Assembly: GCA_009711805.1 (NCBI GenBank) | Contig: VEMX01000020.1 | Span: 1-42,184, forward strand | DNA: 42,184 nucleotides | DNA from: Balneolaceae bacterium | GTDB taxonomy: Bacteria > Bacteroidota > Rhodothermia > Balneolales > Balneolaceae | Direction: 5' to 3' | In this document: positions 2,013 to 7,589 of the stretch, piece after piece | Layout: each line of letters starts with the position of its first letter | Position numbering within the stretch: the first letter of the stretch is position 1 | Made by a program: the position numbers and the translations under genes | Notes under the pieces: generated by a model | The model's database searches: none | Seen by the model: only the letters and a program-made list of their open reading frames with translations | What the model was told of the DNA's origin: nothing

Positions 2013-2420
2013 ATGAACTCAAAATTCAAACTCCTGAGCTGGGTACTTCGAATTACTTCAGCCATTATTCTACTACAAACTTTATTCTTTAAATTCACCG
2101 GGGCTCCTGAAAGCATATATATCTTTGAAACTGTAGGTATGGAACCGTTTGGACGATATGCTTCCGGTATTGCTGAATTAGTTGCATCCATACTTTTTTT
2201 TGTACCGGGATTAACCTGGCTGGGCGCGTTCATTGGACTTGGAGTCATGAGTGGAGCCATTATAAGCCACCTTACCGTTTTGGGAATTGAAGTACAGGAA
2301 GATGGAGGGGTGCTCTTTGTCATGGCCATCATTGTATTTATCTGCTGTGCTATACTTCTTTTTATGTATCGCAAAGACATTCCCATAATTGGGTCCCGGT
2401 TTAATGATGTTGATTCCTGA
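2013..2420 (+). CDS. DoxX-like small integral membrane protein
   Basis: This 135-residue protein has about four hydrophobic segments (roughly 8-27, 50-68, 70-90 and 98-119) and the DoxX-type pattern of a short amphipathic loop (FKFTGAPESIYIFETVGMEPFGRYASGIAEL) between the first two. DoxX-like proteins are inner-membrane proteins of mostly unclear role, some linked to quinone or redox metabolism. It lies on the opposite strand inside the his cluster and ends 4 bp from the hisC stop, so it is convergent with hisC. It therefore splits hisGDC from hisBH. Function here is unknown; the family call is fairly sure. Confidence 0.75.
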   Translation: MNSKFKLLSWVLRITSAIILLQTLFFKFTGAPESIYIFETVGMEPFGRYASGIAELVASILFFVPGLTWLGAFIGLGVMSGAIISHLTVLGIEVQEDGGVLFVMAIIVFICCAILLFMYRKDIPIIGSRFNDVDS

Positions 2421-4797: not shown

Positions 4798-5679
4798 CTA
4801 AAGTATCATACTTTCTATGGGTAACATCACAATATCGGATGCGCCTGTTGCTTTCAGTTCTTCCATCACTACCCAGAACTCATTTAGAGGAATTACGGTG
4901 TGTATAGCAACCATATCGTCTTCGGCCAGGGGAACAACGGTGGGACTCCTCATGGAAGGGATAATGGCTTTGATATCCTCAACTGCTGATTCCGGAGCAT
5001 TTAGCATAATATACCGACTTTTCTTTGCCTGCTGATATCCATCAATCCGCACCAGGAATTTCTCAATTAACTGTTTTTTGCCTGGCGACAATTCCATGTT
5101 GGTTTGAATAAGCTGGGTTTCGGATTCCAGGATGGTATCCAGTTCTTCCAGTCCATTGGCCCGGAGCGTTCCTCCTGTTGAAACCAAATCCACAATAGCA
5201 TCTGCAACTTCCAGTTGGGGAGCAATTTCAACCGCACCGGAAATACCTACAATTTTGATGTTTACCCCTTGTTCTTCAAAGAAACTACGGGTCAGGTTGG
5301 GGTAGCTCGTAGCCACTGTTTTACCGTCAAAATCCTGGGGTGTTTTGATGTTGCCATTTTTAGGAGCCGCCAGCGACAGCCTGCACTTTCCATAGTTAAG
5401 CCCGCGGAGTACTTTTACATCAGCGCGGGATTCGTAGGTTACATTGGCGCCAACAAAGCCCAAATCGCAAACTCCGTCCTGCACATATTCGGGAATATCA
5501 TCGTCCCGGAGCAGCAACAGTTCTACATCAAAATTGCGGGTTTTAACCATCAGGTTGCGTTTATAGTTGTCGAAATCGATGCCGATGCCTTGTAACAAGC
5601 TTACGGTTTTATCGGTCAGTCGTCCGCTTTTTTGAATAGCAATACGCAAAGAGGTAGAAGAATCTTTCGTTCGGTTCAT
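4798..5679 (-). CDS. hisG: ATP phosphoribosyltransferase, long form HisG
   Basis: HisG catalyses the first committed step of histidine synthesis, joining ATP and PRPP. The 293-residue protein is the long (hexameric) form: the catalytic part spans about 11-210, with the PRPP loop [10 protein letters not shown] at 163-172, and the ACT-like HisG_C regulatory domain spans about 217-293. The long form is inhibited by histidine through that domain and needs no HisZ; no hisZ is seen. It is the first gene of the operon. A 75-bp gap separates it from a His-rich leader peptide, so both feedback inhibition and transcriptional or translational attenuation are plausible. Confidence 0.96.
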
Positions 5680-5860
5680 GATAAACAGTATGTAAAAAGG
5701 ATTAGTAAAGAGTGGTTAATGAAAAAAGTCGGGAGTACGGGTGTCAGTTAATATTTACTGCACACGATGATGTCCACGATGGGCGTGATGGACATCGATA
5801 TGATGATAATGAAAGGAGATATGTATCTGTGACTTTTTCACGGCAGAAAAGATAGGCATT
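5680..5860 (-). promoter_or_regulatory. Candidate his attenuator region
   Basis: This is the transcribed leader between the promoter region (5860-6004) and hisG. Two stems are visible. An 8-bp perfect stem (5789-5796 with 5769-5776, 12-nt loop) lies inside the His-codon run, so a ribosome stalled there would disrupt it. A second (5762-5765 plus 5757-5760 with 5741-5748, one-base bulge) spans the leader stop codon. A T run follows in the transcript near 5722-5727, but I cannot draw a convincing GC-rich stem directly before it, so the terminator arm is not shown. Confidence 0.5.
5755..5859 (-). CDS. Histidine-rich leader peptide (34 aa) upstream of hisG
   Basis: From the ATG at 5859 the frame reads MPIFSAVKK, then a stretch with nine His codons between residues 13 and 31 (IHI, FHYHH, VHHAH, GHH), ending VQ and TAA. 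An internal GTG at residue 7 would give a 28-residue version. Nine His in nineteen residues directly ahead of hisG is the hallmark of a his operon leader peptide, whose translation senses charged tRNA-His. It is not homologous in wording to the enteric leader, whose His codons are consecutive. The function is inferred from composition and position. Confidence 0.8.
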   Translation of the reverse strand: MPIFSAVKKSQIHISFHYHHIDVHHAHRGHHRVQ

Positions 5861-6004
5861 CTTTTTGGTAAGGAGCAAGTGCTCAATACGGATTTTATAA
5901 ATTGGTAATATTGGAGTGTTGTGGGGTAATTTTGATAATGATATAAAATTGGCTTTCTACCCCAACAATGGGCAGAAGGCCAAAATAATATACTACCCTT
6001 TTTA

Positions 6005-6457: not shown

Positions 6458-6658
6458 TTACACGTTCCGGTATCATTAGCTGGATTACCAGCTATGCGTT
6501 CAGCACCTATCCCCACCAAATCTTCTCCAAAATTACCGGGATTAACCCCTCCACCTCCCGGCCAATCTCCAATTGTTAATGGTATATTTACCCCGGCAGC
6601 ATTCGCAACATTCACCGCAAGATGTGTACAATTGTGATGGCTCAGATGATAGGTCGTT
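6458..6658 (-). other. Out-of-frame C-terminal extension of the peptidase-like gene
   Basis: Read in the frame reached by adding one G (or losing two) in the tract, this strand codes GTTYHLSHHNCTHLAVNVAN, then AAGVNIPLTIGDWPGGGG, VNPGNFGEDLVG and ends TGTCN-stop at 6458. The pattern YxLxxxNCTxxA...AGVxxP...NPGxxGEDL is what I expect after GHSFF in Cys/His peptidase-like domains. The gap between the two genes is therefore coding sequence, not spacer. The combined protein would be about 378 residues with Cys321 opposite His235. Confidence 0.7.
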
Positions 6659-7589
6659 CCCCCCCCCCCCCCCCGGCATTCCTGATAATATTCAATATAC
6701 CATTTAATTCATCCGGCATTACCATCACGTCAAGGGTAACATTAAAATTTTCATCGTCATCAATTCCAAGAACACCTGAGGACATTGGGTCAGTAATTGG
6801 ATTCACCATACGCTCATTAGGGTAATATCCTATTGTTCTCCTTATTGTTTTCCCACCCAAATTTTGTTTGATTGTAAAAAAAGAATGGCCTACATCAAAT
6901 CCATTATGGGGTTCATCAGTTCCAGGATCAGGCTGATCCGCATGAAGAGATACTATAGCATGTTGACCTGTATCAAAACACGCCAGGTGCTCATCTATAT
7001 CTTCAATTGGGTGATCCGGACTCGGAACTTCAGCCTGAAATAGCTTCTCCTCAATATCCCAATAACACTCATCAACATCATCAGGGCAATCCTGGTAGTT
7101 CCCGTCGCCGGCTGGGGCTGTGCCTCCGGTTCCACCAGAAGCCCCTCCTTCGCCTCCACCCCCTCCCTGAACAGGCGAGCACACGGTTTCATATTCTACT
7201 CCTACAAACTCGGTATCAAGATATTCAACTGTGTTACCACTAACCAGATACCAATCTTTATATATATAGGTTGGTATCTCTTGACAATCCACTCCTAATG
7301 CTTGCGAGCCATTTTTTATGGCTGTGAACGCTTCTTTACTAATTGTTTCCGGAATTCCGGAAAAAACACCTTGATCATATCTTTTCTTAAACACTTTTTC
7401 CCCGCCAGCGTTAAAAAGTATAATCAAGCCTGTATATTTGTCTAAATGATTCCAGCGTACTTGTTCTGTATCTCCCGCTTCTCTCTTTAAAAATTTCAAG
7501 ACATAAAACTCCGGGCTTCCACCTTGTTCAACAGCAACTATTTTATATACTTTCAGGCTGTTTTCTTGTCCCTTTTTATCCCTTGTCAC
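6642..7589 (-). CDS. Secreted-type protein with Gly-rich linker and truncated Cys/His peptidase-like domain
   Basis: As it stands, this reading frame gives 315 residues. The first ~135 residues are a beta-rich region of the kind common in Bacteroidota exported proteins, although no signal peptide is seen and the only start is a GTG just after a stop, so the 5' end may be lost. A Gly-rich linker (142-162) follows. The third part has GHSFFTI (His235) and a DUF4105/NlpC-P60-like flavour (IGYYPNER, SSGVLGIDDD). The frame then enters a homopolymer coding GGGGG and stops after ERPII. In another frame the domain continues to 6458 with an Asn-Cys motif. The domain call is from motif memory only. Confidence 0.6.
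   Translation of the reverse strand: MTRDKKGQENSLKVYKIVAVEQGGSPEFYVLKFLKREAGDTEQVRWNHLDKYTGLIILFNAGGEKVFKKRYDQGVFSGIPETISKEAFTAIKNGSQALGVDCQEIPTYIYKDWYLVSGNTVEYLDTEFVGVEYETVCSPVQGGGGGEGGASGGTGGTAPAGDGNYQDCPDDVDECYWDIEEKLFQAEVPSPDHPIEDIDEHLACFDTGQHAIVSLHADQPDPGTDEPHNGFDVGHSFFTIKQNLGGKTIRRTIGYYPNERMVNPITDPMSSGVLGIDDDENFNVTLDVMVMPDELNGILNIIRNAGGGGGERPII
6659..6674. repeat. C16 homopolymer tract inside a coding region (candidate phase-variation switch)
   Basis: Sixteen consecutive C on the plus strand (G16 in the coding strand) fall within a conserved-looking domain. With 16 the frame ends 5 codons later. With 14 or 17 it would run on for 68 residues. Long G/C tracts in coding regions are known slippage sites used for phase variation. 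Sequencing or assembly miscounting of the tract is the obvious alternative. Confidence 0.75.

What the first reader, a model, noticed from the sequence alone, without database searches (positions are those of the whole stretch)
5680..5860. Histidine-rich leader peptide and stems ahead of hisG: attenuation control in a non-enteric lineage
Seen: a 34-codon frame with nine His codons within nineteen, ending 75 bp before hisG, with an 8-bp stem inside the His run and another stem over the stop codon. Known: leader peptides rich in the regulated amino acid control his operons by ribosome stalling. The His codons are interspersed, and no clear intrinsic terminator is seen, so the mechanism could be translational or use another structure.
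Basis: partly seen in the sequence, partly recalled or inferred. Interest (0 to 1): 0.7.

Follow-up and report, generated by a model that had tools for sequence, protein, structure and literature searches.

The report
Histidine-sensing leader lacking its terminator
A short histidine-rich reading frame in front of the histidine-synthesis genes of a Balneolaceae bacterium is conserved across its family and almost certainly senses histidine supply through the ribosome, but it has lost the transcription stop signal that its relatives, and the tryptophan genes of the same genomes, still carry, so its output must work in another way.

Summary
A His-rich short ORF precedes hisG throughout the family Balneolaceae (63 non-identical leaders analysed); its sequence drifts but the His codons stay. 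The real start is probably GUG at 5841, not the ATG at 5859, which overlaps the promoter. A -33/-7 promoter ends 4-5 nt before the start codon, so the leader mRNA is predicted to be leaderless. Stems at the His run (P1), over or just after the stop codon (P2) and, in the window's clade, between start codon and spacer (P0) co-vary beyond swap controls. Elsewhere in Bacteroidota (broad sense) about 26 of 29 hisG leaders carry an intrinsic terminator; in Balneolaceae 62 of 63 lack one, although 8 of 8 Trp leaders in the family have one. The spacer before hisG is instead pyrimidine-rich and G-poor. An invariant YAUA at nt 19-22 is unexplained. I read it as a ribosome-sensing His leader whose output is no longer an intrinsic terminator. 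Rho is the likeliest replacement (about 0.4), but a Rho-site pattern test failed and P0 fits poorly. No expression data exist. New variant of a known kind.

The parts
5876..5878 (-). -33-like promoter element TTG
   Evidence: TTG(G) conserved at -37..-33 from the start codon in 63 aligned leaders
5847..5854 (-). -7 promoter box TATCTTTT (Bacteroidota type TAnnTTTG)
   Evidence: box ends 4-5 nt before the start codon across the family; box lies at -12 to -5 of mapped start sites in F. psychrophilum (PMC9723704)
5755..5841 (-). His-rich leader ORF, 28 codons, GUG start at 5841-5839: MKKSQIHISFHYHHIDVHHAHRGHHRVQ*
   Evidence: alignment with relatives; predicted transcription start at or next to the GUG
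   Evidence: lies upstream of the predicted start site and abuts the -7 box; not kept in frame in relatives
5820..5823 (-). YAUA motif (CAUA), nt 19-22 from the start codon
   Evidence: nt 22 is A in 63/63 leaders; Y 63/63, A 62/63, U 61/63 at nt 19-21
5831..5841 (-). P0 5' arm GUGAAAAAGUC, includes the start codon
   Evidence: same-species versus swapped arms, clade A z about -5
5720..5730 (-). P0 3' arm GACUUUUUUCA in the spacer
   Evidence: as above
5789..5796 (-). P1 5' arm GAUGUCCA in the His run
   Evidence: marginal in clade A, z -3.0 to -3.6 in clade C
5769..5776 (-). P1 3' arm UGGACAUC
   Evidence: as above
5757..5765 (-). P2 5' arm GUGU-g-CAGU, reaches the stop codon
   Evidence: clade A z -3.2 to -3.9, clade C z -5 to -6
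5741..5748 (-). P2 3' arm ACUGACAC
   Evidence: as above
5680..5754 (-). pyrimidine-rich, G-poor spacer between leader stop and hisG; no intrinsic terminator
   Evidence: 21 C, 4 G, 31 T, 19 A; in the top 1.2% of own-genome upstream regions for C minus G and for pyrimidine; no terminator
4798..5679 (-). hisG, long form with C-terminal regulatory domain
   Evidence: Pfam PF01634 and PF08029
3497..4786 (-). hisD
   Evidence: Pfam PF00815
2425..3489 (-). hisC-like aminotransferase
   Evidence: Pfam PF00155; name from position in the cluster

Best explanation
It is a ribosome-sensing histidine leader for hisGDC. Transcription starts at or next to the GUG of a 28-codon His-rich ORF, so the leader is read from the extreme 5' end of the mRNA (predicted from the promoter, not measured). 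When His-tRNA is scarce the first ribosome stalls in the His codons, the first usually being codon 7, and the downstream hairpins P1 and P2 can form. When His-tRNA is plentiful the ribosome runs to the stop codon and melts P2. Shown by comparison: the leader, the stems and their place relative to the His codons and the stop. Inferred from codon content and target gene: the response to histidine. The intrinsic terminator used by the rest of the phylum is absent, so the OFF signal must be something else; most likely Rho loads on the pyrimidine-rich, G-poor spacer once the ribosome has melted P2 and left, and stops transcription before hisG. I give about 0.9 to 'translated His leader acting in cis on hisG' and about 0.4 to Rho as its output; the confidence stated here is for the whole statement.
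For: His-rich ORF at the same place in 63 non-identical Balneolaceae leaders, one third His in diverged sequences. Co-varying stems over His run and stop. Promoter box 4-5 nt before the start codon. Ancestral form in the phylum is a His leader with intrinsic terminator, lost in 62 of 63 here but kept by Trp leaders of the same genomes. Spacer C 25%, G 6%, against C 18%, G 16.5% before other genes and C 18.5%, G 17.5% in classic-attenuator loci. Rho is encoded. With the ribosome modelled at the stop, spacer exposure rises in 22/29 (clade C) and 7/13 (clade B) leaders and falls in none, while the hisG start region is unaffected.
Against: A simplified Rho-site pattern of regularly spaced YC dimers is met in only 2 of 63 leaders. 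In clade A, which holds the window, spacer exposure does not rise with the ribosome at the stop (2 up, 7 down of 21), because P0 pairs the spacer with the start codon; a stalled ribosome would free the spacer, opposite to what the Rho model needs. The stems do not exclude one another, so no classical switch was found. No expression, start-site or termination data.
Confidence: 0.4

Rival explanations
1. Post-transcriptional output. The stalled ribosome controls hisG translation or mRNA life rather than transcription. A ribosome stalled at codon 7 of a leaderless mRNA covers its 5' end and blocks P0; this would keep the spacer free for ribosome loading at hisG, or shield the 5' end from decay. 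When histidine is plentiful P0 closes over start codon and spacer.
For: P0 is the best supported stem in the window's clade (z about -5) and pairs the start codon itself. First His at codon 7 in 48 of 63 places a stalled ribosome at the 5' end (inference from footprint size). Leaderless poly-Cys leaders of mycobacteria act on downstream translation (Canestrari 2020 as cited in PMC9031893 and PMC13236596).
Against: Accessibility of the hisG start region does not change with ribosome position in the model; P0 3' arm lies about 40-50 nt upstream of the hisG start; hisG has no Shine-Dalgarno sequence to hide; P0 is not found in clade C (p 0.47).
Confidence: 0.3
2. Unusual intrinsic termination or pausing. 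P2 acts as a hairpin that pauses or releases RNA polymerase without a proper U-tract, or a weak terminator was missed by the search.
For: P2 is a conserved hairpin near the right place and the spacer is T-rich.
Against: 62 of 63 lack a stem followed by T4 below -8 kcal/mol while the same genomes use textbook terminators at trpE. A terminator made of P2 would be melted, not formed, by a ribosome at the stop, giving the wrong direction.
Confidence: 0.15
3. The His leader is a relic, or only a translation enhancer by reinitiation, with no histidine response.
For: The terminator is gone, and one Balneolales lineage outside the family has lost the leader altogether, so it is dispensable there.
Against: His codons make up a third of the leader in strongly diverged sequences, the stems co-vary, and promoter spacing and nt 19-22 are almost invariant. 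A relic would decay. The distance to hisG (57-130 nt) is long for reinitiation.
Confidence: 0.07

Closest known systems
Enteric his operon attenuator (hisL; Rfam His_leader RF00514)
   Same: Short ORF rich in His codons directly before hisG; ribosome stalling as the inferred sensor
   Different: No Rfam match, no intrinsic terminator or alternative antiterminator found, His codons interspersed rather than in one run, predicted leaderless GUG start
His leaders with intrinsic terminator elsewhere in Bacteroidota, Rhodothermia and Ignavibacteria; conserved 5' element before hisG reported for Flavobacteriaceae (PMC9723704)
   Same: His-rich leader before hisG; presumably the ancestral form
   Different: Those keep a strong stem and U-tract; the Balneolaceae form has lost it, gained a pyrimidine-rich spacer and a start codon 4-5 nt from the -7 box
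Leaderless poly-Cys leaders of mycobacteria (Canestrari 2020; predicted without terminators in PMC1262725)
   Same: Leaderless short ORF rich in the regulated amino acid, no intrinsic terminator, polyY stretch in the spacer noted there too
   Different: Cys rather than His, different phylum; their reported output is on translation, and hisG here has no Shine-Dalgarno sequence to hide
Leaderless trpL of Sinorhizobium meliloti (PMC7298713)
   Same: Leader peptide ORF starts at the mRNA 5' end
   Different: Keeps a classical terminator
Leader ORFs with Rho-dependent output (tnaC, speF leader and others; general knowledge and PMC6386406, PMC8429421 abstracts)
   Same: Short translated ORF followed by a stretch without intrinsic terminator; ribosome position would control Rho access
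   Different: tnaC and the speF leader respond to a free metabolite rather than to a run of hungry codons; Rho is not shown here and the Rho-site pattern test failed

Membership tests
Classical his transcription attenuator (RF00514-like) | Short ORF rich in His codons just before hisG, conserved | tested here: met
Classical his transcription attenuator (RF00514-like) | Intrinsic terminator between leader and hisG | tested here: not met
   absent in 62/63 and in the window; present in about 26/29 His leaders elsewhere
Classical his transcription attenuator (RF00514-like) | Mutually exclusive terminator and antiterminator helices | tested here: not met
   the supported stems P0, P1 and P2 are compatible with one another
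Classical his transcription attenuator (RF00514-like) | Match to the Rfam model | tested here: not met
   no match at gathering score
Ribosome-mediated leader-peptide control (general) | RNA stems placed so that ribosome position changes them, supported by covariation | tested here: met
Ribosome-mediated leader-peptide control (general) | Expression of the operon responds to the amino acid through leader translation | not testable with these tools
   needs an experiment
Leaderless leader-peptide attenuators (mycobacterial poly-Cys type) | Transcription starts at the leader start codon | tested here: inconclusive
   predicted from a -7 box 4-5 nt before the start codon (spacing from PMC9723704); not mapped
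Leaderless leader-peptide attenuators (mycobacterial poly-Cys type) | Leader pairs with and hides the downstream ribosome-binding site | tested here: not met
   hisG start accessibility independent of ribosome position in the model; no Shine-Dalgarno sequence before hisG
Rho-dependent leader attenuators | Rho present in the genome | tested here: met
   match over cut-off to TIGR00767
Rho-dependent leader attenuators | C-rich, G-poor loading stretch | tested here: inconclusive
   composition fits but spaced YC dimer pattern met in 2/63 only
Rho-dependent leader attenuators | Termination before hisG relieved by loss of Rho activity | not testable with these tools
   needs an experiment

The most novel reading that the evidence does not exclude
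One bacterial family replaced the intrinsic terminator of its his attenuator by another output (Rho or post-transcriptional) while keeping the leader peptide. The new form reads a mostly GUG-started leader from the extreme 5' end of the mRNA, with a stop-codon hairpin, in one clade a start-codon-to-spacer helix, and a fixed four-nucleotide signal at nt 19-22 of unknown role.
Probability: 0.55. Interest if true: 0.7.

Novelty: new variant of a known kind. Interest (0 to 1): 0.55.

Why it matters
The family is a natural experiment: the same genomes carry textbook Trp attenuators and terminator-less His leaders, and relatives keep the ancestral His version. It shows an attenuator apparently changing its output while keeping its sensor, and makes two questions directly testable in culturable strains: what reads ribosome position in these leaders (Rho, translation or mRNA decay), and whether a GUG-started leaderless mRNA can serve as an amino-acid sensor. 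It also supplies a phylum-wide set of His leaders.

Tried and rejected
Rfam families: no match in the window. Intrinsic terminator: absent. Hiding of the hisG start by ribosome-dependent structure: not supported by the model. Rho-site pattern of spaced YC dimers (own simplified version): not met. RNAalifold on a MAFFT alignment: gaps misplace the arms and only P1 is recovered, so same-species versus swapped-arm duplex tests were used. P0 as a family-wide stem: not found in clade C alone (p 0.47). A box 4-5 nt before the start codon as a general habit of the genome: rejected, few other genes show it. YAUA at fixed distance as a phylum-wide signal: rejected. YAUA as a second -7-like box, or as a partner of the hisG start: no convincing match by eye. 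Pyrimidine-rich spacer as a habit of all upstream regions: rejected.

Full report
What is there. On the minus strand hisG (5679-4798), hisD and a hisC-like gene follow each other. The nearest named relatives of the genome are Gracilimonas and Balneola, family Balneolaceae. In 442 kb of the same genome only one other 19-codon open stretch has eight or more His.

Conservation. I took the sequence before hisG from about 180 loci, 119 of them different after removal of duplicates. The Balneolaceae loci in which a leader was found and enough sequence was held were grouped into clade A (21, with the window), B (13, Fodinibius type) and C (29, Rhodohalobacter type). The only Balneolaceae loci of ordinary hisG in which the search found none are cut by contig ends; a further small group (L022-L027, L141) has a His-rich leader of another shape. 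Leader stops lie 57-130 nt before the hisG match and a third of the codons are His while the rest drifts.

Predicted leaderless mRNA. A -7 box (TAnnTTTG type) ends 4 or 5 nt before this start codon in most leaders, with a -33-like TTG at the expected spacing. In Flavobacterium psychrophilum the box occupies -12 to -5 of mapped start sites, and leaderless mRNAs are only 5.5% there (PMC9723704); in Bacteroides thetaiotaomicron about 3.7% of 5' UTRs are under 10 nt (PMC7366714). So the start site is predicted at the start codon or 1 nt before it. Few other genes of this genome show the arrangement, and in Trp leaders of the family where a box was found near the start the gap is 7-15 nt. No start site was mapped.

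Structure. For pairs of windows along the leader I compared duplex energies of arms from the same species with arms swapped between species. Without choosing positions beforehand, the strongest pair was start 0-15 with stop+18 to +33 in clade A (P0), a hairpin just after the stop in clade B, and P1 and then P2 in clade C. After removal of similar leaders: P0 in A z about -5; P2 z -3.2 to -3.9 in A and -5 to -6 in C; P1 z -3.0 to -3.6 in C but marginal in A; the B hairpin z -1.8 to -3.8 with few sequences. P2 is also more stable than versions with a shuffled 3' side (z below -1) in 19/21 and 21/29 leaders. The swap test removes close relatives but is not a full phylogenetic null. The stems do not exclude one another, so no classical switch was found.

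Terminator lost. In 40 hisG upstream regions spread over the phylum, about 26 of 29 plausible His leaders are followed by a strong stem and U-tract, by my reading. In Balneolaceae 62 of 63 leaders have no stem plus T4 below -8 kcal/mol, and the one hit is weak. One genome of the family with a divergent hisG (46% identity, L176) has the classic form. The own-genome Trp leader MITQSIQLQNWWWPYVQKNSGRFA is followed by a textbook terminator, and in all eight Balneolaceae genomes with a detected WW-type Trp leader a terminator of -12.8 to -20.2 kcal/mol is present. So the absence at hisG is specific.

Spacer. The stretch before hisG is on average C 25%, G 6%, pyrimidine 68%, against 18, 16.5 and 49.5% before other genes of the genome; about 1% of those are as pyrimidine-rich and 3.5% have as large a C minus G excess. 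In the classic-attenuator loci the same stretch is C 18.5%, G 17.5%. The composition resembles a Rho loading site, but a simplified pattern of regularly spaced YC dimers is not met (2 of 63). Rho is encoded.

Which output. With ribosome positions modelled as unpaired stretches, the accessibility of the hisG start region does not change, while exposure of the spacer rises with the ribosome at the stop in clades B and C but not in A. In A, P0 pairs the start codon with the spacer, and a stalled ribosome would free the spacer, against the Rho model. I therefore give Rho only about 0.4, keep post-transcriptional control as the main rival, and regard the sensing layer as close to certain on comparative grounds though untested by experiment.

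Unexplained. Counting from the start codon, nt 22 is A in 63 of 63 leaders and nt 19-21 are YAU in almost all. Codon 7 is His in 56 and Tyr in 6; codon 8 is Ile, Thr, Ser or Asn, always with A first. In two leaders of other Balneolales, L051 and L058, CATAY recurs one base off frame (sequences, read by eye). This looks like a nucleotide-level signal at fixed distance from the predicted 5' end. It is not fixed in His leaders elsewhere in the phylum.

Known work. Leader-peptide clues for amino-acid operons and a conserved structured element before hisG without Rfam match are mentioned for Flavobacteriaceae (PMC9723704). Cys leaders without terminators and with polyY stretches were predicted in mycobacteria (PMC1262725) and later shown to be leaderless attenuators (Canestrari 2020, as cited in PMC9031893). 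A leaderless leader peptide is known for S. meliloti trpL (PMC7298713). A survey of his genes in this superphylum does not mention leader peptides (PMC8305728). I found no description of the Balneolaceae form in the open-licence papers that could be searched.

Noticed in passing
window 6659-6674: A run of 16 C near the 3' end of the unassigned ORF 6642-7589 (minus strand); could be an unstable tract or an assembly slip.
   Followed up: no
window 2013-2420 (+): A 135-aa ORF that looks like a small membrane protein (DoxX-like by eye, not tested) sits on the opposite strand between hisC and a hisB-like ORF (1041-1925, minus), so the his cluster is interrupted.
   Followed up: no
L209 / L252 (own genome, upstream of trpE) and L253, L255, L259, L261, L263, L267, L270: Classic Trp leader peptides with strong intrinsic terminators before trpE in Balneolaceae; several relatives have no such leader there.
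   Followed up: partly
L212-L251, upstream of hisG: His leader peptides with intrinsic terminators are widespread in Bacteroidota in the broad sense, including Ignavibacteria-like and Rhodothermia genomes; the region of the first His codons often complements a stretch after the stop, as in a classical attenuator.
   Followed up: partly
L049, L053, L055, L057, L059, L061, L110, L184, L186: One group of Balneolales outside the family has no His leader; a -7-like box lies about 40-50 nt before hisG instead.
   Followed up: no
L176 (G015), L177 (G020), L179 (G004): Members of the family with divergent hisG (43-46% identity); L176 has a classic His leader with terminator, which suggests replacement of the his genes by transfer.
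   Followed up: no
L022, L024, L025, L141: A small group of the family has a His-rich leader with a long stem GGGGAUUUGUGC with GCGCAAAUCCCC spanning the leader end, a different shape of the same idea.
   Followed up: no
window 5820-5823 and nt 19-22 of 63 leaders: Invariant YAUA at a fixed distance from the leader start codon, apparently conserved as nucleotides rather than amino acids; no explanation.
   Followed up: partly
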